Below, piece by piece: positions 14,457 through 33,357 of a stretch of DNA of 35,992 bases. Positions within the stretch are counted from its first letter, which is position 1. Each line of letters opens with the position of its first letter. This DNA is from Hahella sp. HN01 (lineage in GTDB: Bacteria; Pseudomonadota; Gammaproteobacteria; Pseudomonadales; Oleiphilaceae): the NCBI RefSeq assembly GCF_018986435.1, contig NZ_JAHMIN010000032.1, forward strand, positions 41,858 to 77,849, written 5' to 3'. The translations under genes and the position numbers were made by a program. The notes beneath the pieces were generated by a model that saw nothing but the letters and a program-made list of their open reading frames with translations, was not told the DNA's origin and made no database searches.

Positions 14457-14743
14457 CGCTGTTTTCAGCGGCCTTCCGCAAAGTCCAGTTACTTTATTGC
14501 AACGGTTTTGTAAGTCTTGCCTAGGACTTCCCGTGGATTTTCCCGTCTCGAAGCTGGCTTTGATTGTAGTTTCATCTTTTTTATTTTCTTTTAATGTATT
14601 GTTTTTAAAAGAGAAATTATTTCAATTGGTTTTCTTTTTCAGATTGCCCGTGTTATTCAGGTTTTCTGGTATGAAACTTGAAAACTTATCAGCAGTTTTT
14701 GTTGAACCGTTGTAGCGCCGCAGAATGTAAGAGGAGACGATTA
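14457..14743. other. AT-rich leader region before the PEP-CTERM protein gene
   Basis: Most of this gap is unusually AT-rich (14570-14700), with long T-runs and AT-only stretches. It probably holds the promoter of the downstream gene, but no clear -35/-10 or -24/-12 pair stands out. A 72-codon frame at 14497 has no ribosome binding site and biased, repetitive composition, so I do not call it. Confidence 0.5.
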
Positions 14744-15229
14744 ATGCGAAAGGTGACACTTCTTGGTTTTCTGGGCGCTCTGTTATTGACTGGTATGACG
14801 CAGGCTTCCGTCATCGGGGAAGCGGAAGAGGCGACTTGGACCCCGTCGCAAATCCAGGCGGGAGAAATGGCTAAGCAAGGTCGCGCTGCAGTGAGTGAAC
14901 ATCGACCGCATGAGCCGCGTCAGGCGCAAGCGTCGAGAGAGGCGGATGACTGGCTGGACGCCTACGTGCAGGAAATGTTTCAGGTGGAGGCGCGGGCGCC
15001 GCGTTTCATTGGCGCTGAACCGGTGGTCAAACCGTATTGGTTCACATTGCTGTTGTCAGACGTCGCCTCTATTCGCTGGTTGTTCTCGCATTTGGGCGGC
15101 AACCTGTGGGTGATTGATCACAATGGTCCGGTGACCTATGTTCCGCAGCCATCTACTTTGGCGCTGATGGGGTTGGCCGGATTCGCCACGCTGACGGCAG
15201 GATTGCGAAATAAGCATAAATATTGTTAA
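14744..15229 (+). CDS. PEP-CTERM-like sorting-domain protein of unknown function
   Basis: The 161-residue protein has a signal peptide (residues 1-22, ending MTQAS) and a C-terminal tripartite tail. The tail has a motif VPQPS at 133-137, a hydrophobic helix (LALMGLAGFATLTAGL), then basic residues (RNKHK). This is the architecture of PEP-CTERM exosortase substrates, with Q in place of the usual E. The middle is polar and rich in Glu, Gln and Arg (30-90) with no known domain. A fairly hydrophobic segment lies at about 97-121. Such proteins are exported, handed to the exosortase and released or anchored outside. ATG 14744 is preferred because GAGGAG (14731-14736) lies seven bases upstream. An exosortase gene is in the window at 29502-31055. 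Confidence 0.78.
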   Translation: MRKVTLLGFLGALLLTGMTQASVIGEAEEATWTPSQIQAGEMAKQGRAAVSEHRPHEPRQAQASREADDWLDAYVQEMFQVEARAPRFIGAEPVVKPYWFTLLLSDVASIRWLFSHLGGNLWVIDHNGPVTYVPQPSTLALMGLAGFATLTAGLRNKHKYC

Positions 15230-26687: not shown

Positions 26688-26718
26688 ACGCCCGGGATTA
26701 GCCGGGCGTTTTTGTTTT
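26688..26718. terminator. Bidirectional terminator between membrane protein gene and PEP-CTERM VIT protein gene
   Basis: The stem ACGCCCGG/CCGGGCGT has loop GATTAG, followed by TTTTGTTTT on the plus strand and preceded by an A-rich run that gives T on the minus strand. Both flanking genes converge on it. Confidence 0.8.
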
Positions 26719-29512
26719 AAAGACTGGCGGGCTGCAGTGTGAACTGGCGTCTGCGATGCAGGGCGGCGAACGCCAGCATCAGACCTGCCAGTCCCAGCAG
26801 CAGCCACTCTTCAGGCTCAGGAACCGGAGATGCGCTGAACATGTCCATCGGGGCGCTGAAAGCTTCTTGTCCGGTCTCTACCTCTCGATCAAAACGATCC
26901 GCCTTTTGCTCCGCTTCCTCCAGCGCTTTTTTCTGACGCTCTTCCACCAGTACGATCATGGACGAGTAGTCCGTCACCATATGTTCGGCTTTGGCGATCG
27001 CGTGCAATTGATCCAGCACCTGGACATCGGAGGTGTCGCGGGTCTGCGCCAGATATTCCAGCCAGCGGCGCGCGGCGATAGCTGAGAAGAAGTCCTCCCC
27101 GCTTTGCGCGCTGTTATTCTCCGCCTCGGCGCTGGTGTTTTCATCCATGTACCAAAGGTAGTGAGGGGTGATGGCGAACAAGCCGTCTTCTGCTCGCCCT
27201 TGTCGGAACTGGTGGGCGATGATCGCCTCCTCTAGCGACTGGGTGACGCCGCCATGGCTCTGCTTGAGCAAGTCCAGTGTCTGGTCGTGGTAGGCGTAAG
27301 CCAGAGCGCCGCCCAGGTGAACCAGCCATACCGGCGGCATCTGGGTGGCTTTGAATGAGACCTGGGACTCCTGTTCATAGCTGCCGGCGTCGGTCAGCAG
27401 CATCACCGCCTCATAATCCTGCTTTGCGTTTCTGCGCCAGTCGGCTAACTGGTTCATGGGCAGACTGTCGCCATAAAACTCTTCGGCTGCCGGCAGGGTT
27501 TTGATGGGCTGGCAGCGCGTATGGCACAGAAAAATTTCGTGGGCGATATCGAGCTGTTGTAGTTGCTTCAACGCTGCCGCTACATTTTCCGTCTGCTCGC
27601 CCATGCTGTAGGAGCCGTCGATAAGAATGGCGTAAGGCGTTTTTGATGCTTGGATATCCCATTGCGCATCAGCGCCGGTGCGGGGAACGGCGCGAACGCG
27701 CTGGCCAGCGACGACGGCGTCATGCTGCTTGCGCGGGACGACCGCTGACACCGGTGCAGTAGTGGGGAGCCATGCATCCTCTTCAGTGCGAATTGGCTGG
27801 CCGTTCAGGGTGCGTTGAGTTTGATCGCTCCAATAGGCGTTGCGCTTTTCCAACAGCTGAGGCAATGGCCAGGCGCCTTGGTCGTCCATGGTTGTTTTGT
27901 ATTCCACCGTTAAATACATGGGTTTGACCTCGTAGTCCGTACCCAGTCGCAGGCCCATGGAGCGATTGTATTTGGCGCTACGAGGCGGAACGGGAAAGGC
28001 GCGCAAACGATATTGACGGGGGCCGACCTGTTCCAGCAAAGAGGGGTCGATGCGTCGGCTCACTTCGTCGTTGTAAACCTGTTGCGCTGCGCCGCGAGGC
28101 GCCACAGCGTAGACAAACTTGTCCAGATCCGTCGCATCGTCGCTCAGCCATAGGCCCGTTAGCGCGGCTTCTTCCGGAAGACTGAAATGGAACGTGACCT
28201 CATGATTGTTGTAGGTCTGGTTCTCCAGGGTTTGCACTATGCGAATGCGCGCGCTGTCGTCTTGCGGCTCAATCGTGATCGCCATGTTGGTGACTAATAC
28301 ATGCCGGTTTAGCACATCCACCAGTCCGGCAGCGGGGCTGCCTTGGTCGAAGGTGGCTTTGAGGGCGTTTAGAATCGCCTCCGGTTCTCCTTTTTCGATG
28401 GGCTGATCAAAGAACTTCTGATAATAACGGGCGGCGCGCTCTTTATCCTCGTGGAAGTAGGCTCCATCGTAAAGAAAGGGCGTCGCCAAAAAGTCGAAGA
28501 CGGCTTGTGATACTTTCGCCAAAGCATGGTCCGCATTGTCAAAAGCGCCCAGGTAAGCGTTATACACGGCGCTGTTTCTTTCGGTAGTGGATAGATAACG
28601 ATAGGGCGCCAGATAGGCGTTGATCAGCCCTTTGCGCAAGGCGTCGTGTTCTTCTCGCGGAATACTGGGGATCGTTTCGCCAGGTCTGAATTGCTGGTCC
28701 AGGAACGCCATGCGTTCAAAGGTATCTTGCTGCGGCTGCTGGTTCAGGACGGCGAACAGGATGGCGTTTACCCCCAGTATTCCCGCTGCAATGGCGCTGG
28801 CTTTGGCGCGTCCAAGACTGGCGTCCGCAATGCGCCATTCACGCAGAAACTCCCGGATGTAAAGGAAAATCAGCACAAAGGGGAGCGCCAGAAAGACCAC
28901 GCAAGTCGACAGGCCACATATCAGCGCTACCAGGAAGAGTAGATAGTTAAAAATATCACCCAGGTGGCTTAGTTTGATCTCTCCCAATAATTCGAAGAAG
29001 CCTGCGGTGGCGGGAATAAAGAACGGCGCGAGCAGCAGTGCGCAATACAGGCCAGTCAACAGCATGGTCATGGCGAGACTGAGTCGCAGCCACATGGGGA
29101 AACGAGTGTGGAGGCCGCCCCACAGACAGGCGAGATAGGCGAATAGGGCGACCAGTATATTGATCAGCACGTGCGTGACGCCCGGATTGAGCTCGCGCAG
29201 CAGGAACATTGTGCTCAGCATGATAAAGATGATGGGCATTTCCACGCCGTAAAACAGTTTGACCAGCGCGGTGGGATTTTTCCGGAAACGCGTGAAACCC
29301 AGACCGATACAGAGCGCCGGTATCGCCACCAACAGGGTGGCGAACAATGCGGTGAACCCGCTGTGCAGCCCGATGACGGCGCCGGTGATCGCGGGCATGG
29401 TGAAGTGGGGAATGATCAGGACGCCCGCAAGCACGGCGTAGGTCAGGTTCCAGAACCAGAACAGGAGGTAGCAGCAGACCGCTATCCACACAGGTAACTT
29501 CTTATTTTCCAT
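26717..29512 (-). CDS. PEP-CTERM integral membrane protein with VIT and VWA domains
   Basis: The 931-residue protein has about seven membrane helices in residues 1-265. A soluble linker (265-400) precedes a VIT-like domain (about 405-540, FHFSLPEEAALTGLWL and QQVYNDEVSRRIDPSLLEQV). A von Willebrand A domain (about 625-770) has an intact MIDAS start DGSYS (633-637) and a later Asp in LLTDAG. The YSSMIVLVEE segment (850) is typical of VIT proteins. The tail is an exosortase signal: VPEPEEW (897-903), hydrophobic helix to about 918, then HRRRQ. It overlaps the upstream exosortase gene by 11 bases, which strongly suggests it is that enzyme's substrate. The VWA domain probably binds a partner in a metal-dependent way. 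Family databases describe rare polytopic PEP-CTERM proteins, and this seems to be one. Confidence 0.87.
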   Translation of the reverse strand: MENKKLPVWIAVCCYLLFWFWNLTYAVLAGVLIIPHFTMPAITGAVIGLHSGFTALFATLLVAIPALCIGLGFTRFRKNPTALVKLFYGVEMPIIFIMLSTMFLLRELNPGVTHVLINILVALFAYLACLWGGLHTRFPMWLRLSLAMTMLLTGLYCALLLAPFFIPATAGFFELLGEIKLSHLGDIFNYLLFLVALICGLSTCVVFLALPFVLIFLYIREFLREWRIADASLGRAKASAIAAGILGVNAILFAVLNQQPQQDTFERMAFLDQQFRPGETIPSIPREEHDALRKGLINAYLAPYRYLSTTERNSAVYNAYLGAFDNADHALAKVSQAVFDFLATPFLYDGAYFHEDKERAARYYQKFFDQPIEKGEPEAILNALKATFDQGSPAAGLVDVLNRHVLVTNMAITIEPQDDSARIRIVQTLENQTYNNHEVTFHFSLPEEAALTGLWLSDDATDLDKFVYAVAPRGAAQQVYNDEVSRRIDPSLLEQVGPRQYRLRAFPVPPRSAKYNRSMGLRLGTDYEVKPMYLTVEYKTTMDDQGAWPLPQLLEKRNAYWSDQTQRTLNGQPIRTEEDAWLPTTAPVSAVVPRKQHDAVVAGQRVRAVPRTGADAQWDIQASKTPYAILIDGSYSMGEQTENVAAALKQLQQLDIAHEIFLCHTRCQPIKTLPAAEEFYGDSLPMNQLADWRRNAKQDYEAVMLLTDAGSYEQESQVSFKATQMPPVWLVHLGGALAYAYHDQTLDLLKQSHGGVTQSLEEAIIAHQFRQGRAEDGLFAITPHYLWYMDENTSAEAENNSAQSGEDFFSAIAARRWLEYLAQTRDTSDVQVLDQLHAIAKAEHMVTDYSSMIVLVEERQKKALEEAEQKADRFDREVETGQEAFSAPMDMFSASPVPEPEEWLLLGLAGLMLAFAALHRRRQFTLQPASL

Positions 29513-31055
29513 TGTCGCTCCGTTCAGCGCCGGAAGTCTCAGCTCCGGTCAGGATGTGTTGAACATGTTGGCGCAGTAAAGCTGTCGCCTGCGCCGCAAG
29601 GTCGGGGGTAATCATGCTGTTCCAGGCGATGGAGACCATCACCCAGGATTGTTCCGGTTCACGCCAGGCGGAAAAAACGCGGGAGGAATAATCCGCGGTT
29701 TGCCTGTCGGCGGACTGGAACCAATAAAATGCGGAGCGGGCGCCTTGGTCGAGGCGCAGATATTTAATCTCGCTTTGGTCCGGCAGCACCCAGGTTTTCT
29801 CATCATCAATGCTGACGCCCTGGGATCGATAGCAATTACGGGGATCGTGCTGGGCTTTCCAGTAGCGGCTGTGCACCAGAATCAAACTGCCCTGCATGTC
29901 CCGCCAGGAAAACAGGTATTTGCGGGCAGTGGCGGCGTTGCGATCAAAAAAGCCGGCTTCTATGTCGGATAAGGGAGCCGCCTGCGCGGCGAACTGTGGC
30001 GGCGCCGGCAGGTCGACCGATGCGTCCGCCAGCGTCTGTTTCGGGTGCGGTGTATAGCCGAACAGCGCCAGAACCAGGAGAGCGGCAATGGCGAGTTCCC
30101 CGTTACGACGCCAAACCGATGGCTCCGTCGAGGCTGATCCAGAGAAACGGGAGAAAGATGATGGCGCATTGTTCTGGTCCGCCTGAGGACGCGATGGCGC
30201 CAAGGTCAGGGCGAGCCAGGCCAAGGCGCAGGACAGCACAAATCCCAACGCGCCGAGGGCTGTATGAATGTGATCCGCAACCTGCGGCGCATCCAGCGCC
30301 AGATCTGTATACACCAGGGCGGTAATGCGCAGCGCGTTGAAGAATATCAGTGCGCTGAGAAACAGCATCAGGACGGCAAGCCAGCGCCAGGACAGCGCCT
30401 TGCGCTCCAACCAGGTGAGCAGCAGGAAAAAGATCATACCCGCCCAGATTCCTTTCAAGCCGCTGCAGGCCAGATCCACCACCGCCGCTTTGTTTTCAAT
30501 CAGGATGATGGACTCATTGGACATGGGAGGAACGCCCAACGCAGAGAGTAAGTCGCCAGCCAGATCGGCGCACAGCAGGCGCAGAGGAAAGCCAAGATAA
30601 ATATCCAGATAACCTTCAAAGGGAAGTGCGAATATCAACAGTGCGCAGGGGATCAACGCGCTGCGCCAGAGACTGGGCGCGACATACAGGCCCAGCAGGC
30701 CGTAACTGGCGGTTGTCATTAGCGTGGCGGAGAAGATATGAATGCCGGTGACGTACTCGTTGAGTAGATAAGCAAAACAGCTGGTCGTCAGCAGGGCGAA
30801 GGGAAGCATGCGCCATTGAAACGCCAGCCCATGGCCAGAAGATGTTTTTCTCCTGTAAGCATGGATCGCTACGCCGACCAGTAAAAGACAGGCGAGGACA
30901 TGGAACTCGTTTTCCGGCGTCAGCATCTGGTTTCCTATCCAGGCTAGGACAGGGCTGAACAGCCATAGGAAAAGGGTGGCGATAATCACGCGAACGCCAA
31001 TACGATAAAGCGGCGGACTAAACAGGGATGTTCCGGACAATGCGTTTGGCGGCAT
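29502..31055 (-). CDS. Exosortase with fused C-terminal EpsI-like domain
   Basis: The 517-residue protein has about eight membrane helices in residues 20-290 holding the exosortase catalytic set: Cys197 in LACSGLKG, Arg243 in NALRI and His264 in HTALGALGF. Exosortases cleave PEP-CTERM signals of exported proteins. After a linker and one further helix (about 320-334), residues 365-500 form a soluble domain resembling EpsI (HDPRNCYRSQGVSIDD, then YFWF/WVMVSIAW-type strands). The enzyme and this domain are often two genes. The stop overlaps the start of the VIT/VWA PEP-CTERM gene, so the two are coupled. From memory, exosortase type O has a similar neighbour, but I cannot confirm the class. No polysaccharide genes, usual partners of EpsH-type systems, are in the window. 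Confidence 0.88.
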   Translation of the reverse strand: MPPNALSGTSLFSPPLYRIGVRVIIATLFLWLFSPVLAWIGNQMLTPENEFHVLACLLLVGVAIHAYRRKTSSGHGLAFQWRMLPFALLTTSCFAYLLNEYVTGIHIFSATLMTTASYGLLGLYVAPSLWRSALIPCALLIFALPFEGYLDIYLGFPLRLLCADLAGDLLSALGVPPMSNESIILIENKAAVVDLACSGLKGIWAGMIFFLLLTWLERKALSWRWLAVLMLFLSALIFFNALRITALVYTDLALDAPQVADHIHTALGALGFVLSCALAWLALTLAPSRPQADQNNAPSSFSRFSGSASTEPSVWRRNGELAIAALLVLALFGYTPHPKQTLADASVDLPAPPQFAAQAAPLSDIEAGFFDRNAATARKYLFSWRDMQGSLILVHSRYWKAQHDPRNCYRSQGVSIDDEKTWVLPDQSEIKYLRLDQGARSAFYWFQSADRQTADYSSRVFSAWREPEQSWVMVSIAWNSMITPDLAAQATALLRQHVQHILTGAETSGAERSDNGK

Positions 31056-31156: not shown

Positions 31157-31609
31157 TCAGAACCAGTTTGTGTTTTGAAAGTAGGCGCCGAACTGATCGA
31201 ACAGGCCGACGATGATGGCGTAGCGGGCGCCTTTGCCGGCGAAAGTGAGGAAAACAAAGATGGGCAGACGTATACGCATGAGGCCGGCGATGAAGGTCAG
31301 TGCGTCGCCGAACAGAGGCGCCCAGGCCATGAGCAGGGACCACACGCCATAACGTTGAAACCAGCCCTGCGCGGGCCCCAGGTTTTTCTCCTTGAAGGGA
31401 AACCAGCGCCGGTCCTTGAAGTGCAGAAGATAACGCCCCAACGCCCAATTAACGACGGAGCCAAGAGTATTGCCGACCGTGGCGAACACCCACAACAACG
31501 CCGGATCGTAGCCAGCGGTGAGCAGGCCGGCGAGCATGATTTCGGAATAGGCGGGCACCAGCGTCGCCGCCAGAAAGGCGATGAAAAACAGGCTGAAGTA
31601 AGCTTCCAC
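31157..31609 (-). CDS. YqaA/DedA-like (SNARE-associated) membrane protein
   Basis: The 150-residue protein has four to five hydrophobic helices with family segments FLAATLVPAYSEIMLAGLL (about 12-30), ATVGNTLGSVVNWALGRYL (about 43-61), WFQRYGVWSLLMAWAP (about 83-98) and GDALTFIAGLMRI (about 101-113). This matches YqaA, the small member of the DedA/VTT membrane proteins implicated in lipid scrambling. The start is GTG 31609. The VOC gene ends 9 bases upstream, so the two form an operon. It runs in the same direction as the exosortase gene, 101 bases further on. Confidence 0.82.
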   Translation of the reverse strand: MEAYFSLFFIAFLAATLVPAYSEIMLAGLLTAGYDPALLWVFATVGNTLGSVVNWALGRYLLHFKDRRWFPFKEKNLGPAQGWFQRYGVWSLLMAWAPLFGDALTFIAGLMRIRLPIFVFLTFAGKGARYAIIVGLFDQFGAYFQNTNWF

Positions 31610-32610: not shown

Positions 32611-33357
32611 TTATTTGCGGAAGCATCTCCGCATGCCCAGTCCCAATAGTCCTGTCATGAACAACGCCAGCACGGAAGATTCGCTGACAGGCGTCGGCGG
32701 CTCAATACGCAGGCTGGTGGTGATATTGAAGTTGGACTGAGTGGTGTGACGCTCGGCGAAAAAGATATCGAGATCGTAAACGGTGTCTTCCGCCAAGCCC
32801 AGCCCCAGTAAATCAGAGCCGCTGAAATGGCCATTGGTCGGGCCGTGTACGCCGCCCAGATCCATCACCAGTTTGCCGTCGATAAACACCCACAGGTCGT
32901 CATCACCGGTGAAGTCAAACATATCCATCTCTTTGAAGGAGGTTTTGCCTTCCAGGTGCATGGCGAAGTGATAGTTGTGGCTGCGTCCTTCATTGCCGGA
33001 CAACTCGCCATCGATAGGGAAGAATGTGGAATCGCTGTACGAGTACATGCCGCTTCCGTTGTCCGCCAGATTCAATTCCACGGATTTGGAACCATGGGAA
33101 TCGCTCCACCAATTATCGAAGCTGGCTGCGCTTTGCACGCCGCCGTAGCCGCCCGTACCAATGTAATCAGGTAGTCCGTCTGAGCCCAACGTGGAAGCCA
33201 GCATACCTCGTGAAAGGCCGCTGATGGCGTCTTCGAAGTCGGCTTCAGAGGCGACGTGATCGTAAATGGTTCCGGTCAGCAGGTAGGCTTGTGCGGCTCC
33301 GCTTAGAGAAAGCGCCAGAGTGGCTGCGATAAGGGTTGGATACTTACTCGGCTTCAT
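32611..33357 (-). CDS. Fibro-slime domain protein with degenerate PEP-CTERM-like tail
   Basis: The 248-residue protein has a signal peptide (residues 1-24, ending GAAQA) and a fibro-slime domain of the PA14-like beta-sandwich type: [22 protein letters not shown] with VHGPTNGH (about 147-175) and [20 protein letters not shown] (about 197-216). This domain is best known from slime-mould and fibrobacter surface proteins. The C-terminal tail has VSESS (224-228), a hydrophobic helix and RRCFRK, like a PEP-CTERM signal with SES in place of PEP. It probably becomes extracellular or surface-attached through the exosortase. AAGGAG sits nine bases before ATG 33357. A TAGGC/GCCTA hairpin with CGAAAA loop (33434-33449) lies upstream in the leader. 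Confidence 0.83.

What the first reader, a model, noticed from the sequence alone, without database searches (positions are those of the whole stretch)
26717..31055. Exosortase coupled by gene overlap to a polytopic VIT/VWA PEP-CTERM substrate
The exosortase gene (Cys197, Arg243, His264 intact, fused to an EpsI-like domain) overlaps by 11 bases the gene of a 931-residue multi-helix protein with VIT and VWA domains and a clear PEP-CTERM tail. Dedicated one-enzyme/one-substrate pairs are unusual for exosortases, and a membrane-spanning substrate is odder still because cleavage would free or re-anchor only its C-terminus. Seen: architecture and overlap. Known: exosortase/PEP-CTERM logic and VWA metal-dependent binding. 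Inferred: the VIT/VWA domain is displayed outside and its tail is processed by this enzyme.
Basis: partly seen in the sequence, partly recalled or inferred. Interest (0 to 1): 0.75.

Follow-up and report, generated by a model that had tools for sequence, protein, structure and literature searches.

The report
Exosortase O with its single substrate
Two overlapping bacterial genes appear to encode a membrane-embedded protein-cutting enzyme and the one protein it acts on, and comparing relatives suggests a short tail motif that the enzyme may read.

Summary
Window 29502-31055(-) is a full-length exosortase O (TIGR04489) and 26717-29512(-) a full-length TIGR02921 PEP-CTERM protein, overlapping by 11 bases. 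Both families were already catalogued: a new member of a known kind.

New here: of 84 target rows (window plus 83 relatives), 44 have an XrtO-like gene on the same strand, in 43 immediately upstream. Of the 43 paired targets with a readable tail, 42 carry PEPxEW; of 37 unpaired targets, 36 do not and resemble ordinary PEP-CTERM tails. In the window's genome and in 23 of 24 other paired genomes, the only in-frame PEPxEWxL found belongs to a TIGR02921 protein. This supports a one-enzyme/one-substrate pair with a readable motif, lost where the enzyme is missing.

The predicted target has seven N-terminal helices, a periplasmic VIT/VWA part most like human inter-alpha-inhibitor heavy chain 1, and a C-terminal sorting helix. 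Cleavage and acceptor are inferred, not shown; independent evolutionary contrasts are too few for significance.

The parts
29502..31055 (-). exosortase O (XrtO): membrane domain with Cys197, Arg243, His264, fused to a C-terminal EpsI-like domain with an invariant HxPxxC motif
   Evidence: TIGR04489 581.1 bits vs 250; PF09721 116.8 bits; residues invariant in 40 of 40 paired exosortases; AlphaFold2 pLDDT 84.8
26717..29512 (-). TIGR02921-family substrate: 7 N-terminal membrane helices, conserved linker, VIT domain, VWA-like domain, PEP-CTERM tail
   Evidence: TIGR02921 1461.7 bits vs 200; VIT residues 409-512; AlphaFold2 pLDDT 85.8; best PDB match ITIH1, E 1.5e-13
29502..29512 (-). 11-base overlap of the two genes; target ATG preceded by GGAG
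   Evidence: 24 of 41 other pairs measured also overlap, by a rough start call
26747..26824 (-). PEP-CTERM sorting tail: PEPEEW motif, hydrophobic helix, RRR
   Evidence: TIGR02595 residues 897-922, 18.3 bits vs 16 (same place); the only in-frame PEPxEWxL found in the genome

Best explanation
An operon-coupled, one-enzyme/one-substrate exosortase system. The substrate sits in the inner membrane with N-terminus inside and seven helices, placing its VIT/VWA part (about residues 257-899) in the periplasm and its C-terminal helix as a temporary anchor. XrtO, in the same membrane, recognises the tail by PEPxEWxL at the outer face of that membrane, and Cys197 (with Arg243 and His264) cuts near the PEP motif, releasing the C-terminal helix and probably passing the new C-terminus to an acceptor. 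The N-terminal helices keep the protein on the membrane, so processing frees or re-attaches only its far end. Shown by comparison: pairing, the motif, and that both go together. Predicted: topology and fold. Inferred: the cut, its position, the acceptor and the biological role. Where XrtO is absent the tail is of the ordinary PEP-CTERM type, which suggests that another exosortase, such as cyanoexosortase B, serves it.
For: XrtO-like gene on the same strand in 44 of 84 rows; in 43 of 44 directly upstream, 1.3 kb away in L097. Of 41 pairs measured, 24 overlap and 16 have gaps of 2-217 bases. PEPxEW in 42 of 43 paired readable tails, 1 of 37 unpaired, 0 of 59 generic tails. W at +3 and L at +5 in 43 of 43 paired; glycine at +5 in 0 of 43 paired, 22 of 37 unpaired, about 40 of 59 generic tails. 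Only in-frame PEPxEWxL found in the own genome and in 23 of 24 other paired genomes (in G965 it lies on a separate contig as a TIGR02921 C-terminal piece). Of 11 genomes searched for PEP-CTERM at E 0.05, G955, G958, G959, G963 have none and G956 only its target. Enzyme and substrate distances correlate, r 0.989, 0 of 2000 permutations as high. One genome holds both tail types.
Against: No biochemistry. Pairing and tail change about five times each on the tree; of 2 independent contrasts on well supported branches the tail goes the same way in 0.9 on average and the other way in 0.0, too few for a significant sign test. Exceptions: L093 is paired but PEPELW; L067 has PEPEEW without an adjacent XrtO (its genome, 84% complete, holds XrtO pieces); L159 has PEPHEW in a genome with no exosortase found, though its upstream DNA is not held. 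8 of 37 unpaired tails keep a W at +3. The distance correlation may reflect species relationships alone. The link of unpaired targets to cyanoexosortase B is inference.
Confidence: 0.78

Rival explanations
1. The tail motif and the pairing merely share ancestry: PEPxEW is an old trait of the target, and XrtO does not read it.
For: Few independent changes; 2 contrasts on well supported branches. L067 keeps the motif without an adjacent XrtO.
Against: The motif is kept in records titled Gammaproteobacteria, Polaromonas, Myxococcales, Deltaproteobacteria, Bacteroidetes and Cyanobacteria at 31-42% identity to the window's protein, while unpaired cyanobacterial lineages differ at these positions. 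One genome holds both types.
Confidence: 0.13
2. The target is processed by one of the other exosortases of the genome, and XrtO acts elsewhere.
For: The window's genome has two other exosortases and about 25 other PEP-CTERM tails; all 27 unpaired-target genomes searched have an exosortase.
Against: In paired genomes G963 and G956 the only exosortase match is the one beside the target, and no other PEP-CTERM hit reaches E 0.05.
Confidence: 0.05
3. The target is not cleaved; XrtO and target form a complex and the tail helix is only a docking anchor.
For: No cleavage data; the protein is already held by seven predicted helices.
Against: All three catalytic residues are invariant in 40 of 40, which mere docking would not require.
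Confidence: 0.04

Closest known systems
Exosortase O (NCBIfam TIGR04489) and TIGR02921 family PEP-CTERM protein
   Same: Both window proteins match these models over full length, far above cut-off.
   Different: No difference at family level. The PEPxEW motif and its absence from unpaired copies were not found described in the searches made.
Exosortase N with XrtN system VIT domain-containing protein (TIGR04476, TIGR04477)
   Same: By model names, an exosortase with a VIT protein that it sorts; both window proteins match below cut-off.
   Different: 69.1 bits vs 200 and 17.9 bits vs 250.
MSEP-CTERM protein (TIGR04286) and marine proteobacterial sortase target (TIGR03788)
   Same: Weak local match over the VIT region.
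   Different: 16.9 bits vs 150 and 20.5 bits vs 551.65; other sorting systems by name.
Cyanoexosortase B of Nostoc punctiforme (PMC12188702; passages seen)
   Same: An exosortase tied by mutant data to PEP-CTERM proteins, motility and biofilm; unpaired target tails resemble generic cyanobacterial tails.
   Different: A single putative exosortase with 35 predicted PEP-CTERM proteins, not one substrate.
Human inter-alpha-inhibitor heavy chain 1, ITIH1 (PDB 6fpy; PMC7170535, passages seen)
   Same: Best PDB fold match of the target; MIDAS Asp, Ser, Ser, Asp in both.
   Different: ITIH1 is a secreted animal protein joined to a glycan at its C-terminus by another route; TM-score by query length only 0.25; no N-terminal membrane helices or PEP-CTERM tail (recalled).

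Membership tests
Exosortase O (TIGR04489) | score above curated cut-off over the full model | tested here: met
   581.1 bits vs 250, model 1-451 of 451
Exosortase family | conserved Cys, Arg, His of the active site | tested here: met
   C197, R243, H264 in 40 of 40 paired exosortases; their role is recalled knowledge
EpsI (DUF3485) | domain score above gathering cut-off | tested here: not met
   15.2 bits vs 26.1; called EpsI-like only
TIGR02921 PEP-CTERM protein | score above curated cut-off over the full model | tested here: met
   1461.7 bits vs 200, model 1-921 of 922
PEP-CTERM | PEP motif, hydrophobic helix, basic C-terminus | tested here: met
   18.3 bits vs 16; helix 900-925
PEP-CTERM/exosortase sorting | tail cleaved by the exosortase | not testable with these tools
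   needs an experiment
XrtN/VIT system | scores above the TIGR04476 and TIGR04477 cut-offs | tested here: not met
   69.1 vs 200; 17.9 vs 250
ITIH-type VIT/VWA protein | VIT plus VWA fold with MIDAS residues | tested here: met
   VIT, fold, D632/S634/S636/D708; the usual MIDAS Thr position is not clear: the window has Asp682 where 66 of 84 rows have Thr or Ser
ITIH-type VIT/VWA protein | C-terminus covalently joined to a polysaccharide | not testable with these tools
   no data

The most novel reading that the evidence does not exclude
XrtO does not simply release its substrate but joins the new C-terminus of the ITIH-like ectodomain to a periplasmic or surface glycan or glycolipid. A protein held in the inner membrane by seven helices would thus become a covalent tether between membrane and matrix, parallel in function to the attachment of animal ITIH heavy chains to hyaluronan. 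The pair carries its own recognition code, PEPxEW, which evolution has rewritten several times when the substrate passed to another exosortase.
Probability: 0.18. Interest if true: 0.82.

Novelty: new member of a known kind. Interest (0 to 1): 0.5.

Why it matters
How exosortases choose substrates, and what becomes of the cut C-terminus, is poorly tested. A pair in which one enzyme has one substrate, with a short motif that sets it apart from other tails in the same cell, makes both questions testable. The substrate should stay on the membrane after cutting, so the product should be easier to find than released PEP-CTERM proteins.

Tried and rejected
Conserved neighbourhood beyond the pair: the VTT gene, glyoxalase-like gene, fibro-slime gene and the 161-aa gene gave no tblastn match (E 1e-3, 1e-4) in the fetched relatives, so only the pair was seen to travel together.

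Solved structures for the exosortase: no Foldseek match at E 0.001, no sequence match at E 0.1. Weak START-like hits (best E 0.21) are not used. For the target, the sequence-profile search of solved structures gave one hit, PARP4, at E 0.039.

The first genome scan with the single window protein found nothing; the profile scan found 117 relatives, of which the tool kept the best 80. Rows dropped before counting: L090, L091 and L092, the same contigs as L064, L067 and L068. L139, L145 and L159 were set as not assessable for pairing (contig edge) and L160 for tail (cut off). Unpaired means no XrtO-like frame in the DNA held, at least 1344 bases upstream. For the generic tails I fetched 60 of the 90 matches listed for seven genomes, mostly from the top of the list and leaving out targets; 59 could be read (L272 gave none), and a few were registered on an upstream PE motif, so their column counts are approximate.

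No paper with the words exosortase O, TIGR02921 or TIGR04489 was found; two searches gave nothing to the point. The 2012 archaeosortase/exosortase paper is not held. NCBI's own notes on these families were not available here.

Full report
Observation. The two genes are as described: 29502-31055(-), 517 aa, and 26717-29512(-), 931 aa, overlapping by 11 bases, with GGAG before the second ATG. By curated models the first is exosortase O (TIGR04489, 581.1 bits, cut-off 250) and the second a TIGR02921 PEP-CTERM protein (1461.7 bits, cut-off 200). VIT is a clear Pfam hit; the VWA domain is not, and rests on fold and conserved residues.

Own genome. The window lies in a 7.13 Mb, 134-contig genome with three exosortase matches and 29 PEP-CTERM matches at E 1, 27 of them marked over the cut-off. 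I read 27 of the 29 regions (the other two are in the window: the target and the fibro-slime gene); about 25 are real tails by eye and none has PEPxEW. A DNA pattern for PEPxEWxL hits twice: one is the target, the other has an in-frame stop. The other two exosortases were not classified (one search failed). TIGR02921 is over cut-off in 6 of 390 genomes of the order and in 1 of 185 of the class, that one being the window's own. XrtO is over cut-off in 1 of 398 genomes of the phylum, again the window's own, and in 4 of 390 of the order, each with the target next to it. In a fifth, G253, XrtO is split over two contigs and its C-terminal part adjoins the target. The sixth, G324, has the target without an adjacent XrtO and XrtO pieces elsewhere.

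Relatives. A profile scan of one genome per species found 117 relatives; the best 80 were kept. With six loci fetched earlier and the window, less three duplicates, this gives 84 rows. 44 have an XrtO-like gene in the DNA held, 37 have none, 3 cannot be judged. All 43 besides the window are on the same strand as the target, 42 directly upstream and one (L097) 1.3 kb away. Of 41 of these measured to the first Met (rough), 24 overlap, 16 have gaps of 2-217 bases, one 1312. Record titles of paired loci include Cyanobacteria, Gammaproteobacteria, Polaromonas, Myxococcales, Deltaproteobacteria and Bacteroidetes. Enzyme and substrate distances correlate at r 0.989 in 40 pairs, 0 of 2000 permutations as high; shared species history alone could do this.

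The tail. Of 43 paired targets with a readable tail, 42 have PEPxEW; L093 has PEPELW. Of 37 unpaired, 36 lack it; the exception is L067, from the incomplete G324. At +3 tryptophan and at +5 leucine are found in 43 of 43 paired tails. Unpaired tails often have glycine at +5 (22 of 37), as do generic PEP-CTERM tails of seven cyanobacterial genomes (about 40 of 59; 0 of 59 have PEPxEW); 8 of 37 unpaired tails keep a W at +3. Of 49 genomes of these loci searched for exosortases, 48 have one. By my tally of that table, all 27 unpaired-target genomes have at least one match, and in 26 of 27 no match over cut-off has an open frame above 349 aa; 20 of 20 paired genomes have one of 485 aa or more. The 27th, Microseira wollei (G950), has an unpaired copy with IPEPGMAIG and pieces of a second copy: an N-terminal piece after an XrtO gene and a C-terminal piece with PEPAEW on another contig. 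That these two pieces are one gene is inference.

One enzyme, one substrate. Of 24 paired genomes searched with the pattern, besides the window's, 23 have it, and in each the only in-frame match read is a TIGR02921 protein; G924 has none, and in G965 the match is a piece at the start of another contig. Five unpaired genomes tested have none. Of 11 genomes searched for PEP-CTERM at E 0.05, G955, G958, G959 and G963 have no hit and G956 only its target. That search also misses the targets of the first four, so other atypical tails could be missed too; in G956 150 of 161 candidates were scored. The other six genomes have 7 to 16 hits each, so there XrtO lives beside an ordinary PEP-CTERM system or, in G310, is gone.

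Tree. On a tree of the target without its last 75 residues, pairing and tail each need five changes. Four losses of pairing among cyanobacteria seem to go with a tail change (read by eye, several forks open); that of L067 does not. Independent contrasts: 2 on well supported branches (tail goes the same way in 0.9 on average, the other way in 0.0), 5 on all branches; no significance can be claimed.

Structure and topology. The target model (pLDDT 85.8) has seven long N-terminal helices and a C-terminal helix 900-925. Family-averaged charges follow the positive-inside rule for N-inside, ectodomain outside, C-terminus inside (many relatives were cut before residue 17, so the N-terminal end itself is thinly covered). 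The best PDB match is ITIH1 (6fpy, E 1.5e-13, 617 columns, TM 0.25 by query length). ITIH1's MIDAS uses Asp298, Ser300, Ser302 and Asp403; here D632, S634, S636 and D708 are conserved in 83, 83, 84 and 84 of 84 rows. ITIH heavy chains are joined by their C-termini to a glycan, and a C-terminal pro-domain is removed in the process (PMC7170535, passages). The parallel suggests, but does not show, a glycan acceptor. The exosortase model (pLDDT 84.8) has no solved relative at the thresholds used.

Known and new. [quoted passage not shown] that this is TIGR02921 is my inference. Both families carry curated models. I saw passages of four papers (PMC1569441, PMC12188702, PMC10936215, PMC7170535) and otherwise listings. 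My searches showed nothing on the PEPxEW motif or on exchange of tails, but they were word searches, lists were capped, and most subscription papers are not held. Verdict: a known kind of pair, better defined here, with a testable recognition code.

Noticed in passing
window 32611-33357 (-): Fibro-slime/PA14 domain protein with a PEP-CTERM-like tail in which PEP reads SES (VSESS); TIGR02595 14.7 bits, 19.1.
   Followed up: no
window 14678-15229 (+): A 183-aa ORF with no Pfam hit at E 1e-5 ends in a PEP-CTERM-like tail with PQP in place of PEP.
   Followed up: no
window 31157-31609 (-): VTT-domain gene just upstream of XrtO, weakly like undecaprenyl phosphate transporters (UptA model, 33 bits vs 300); not found near the pair in the relatives fetched.
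   Followed up: partly
L066 (G310): A genome with the same genus code (g212) as paired genomes G217 and G282 holds only decayed pieces of the target, and its single exosortase match is not next to them: apparent joint loss of the pair.
   Followed up: partly
L229 (G931): Rhizonema has a further 545-aa exosortase only weakly like XrtO (29 bits), possibly another two-domain class.
   Followed up: no
window 29502-31055 (-), C-terminal domain of XrtO: The whole XrtO model gives weak START/ABA-receptor-like fold hits (best E 0.21), not significant; which part matches was not shown.
   Followed up: no
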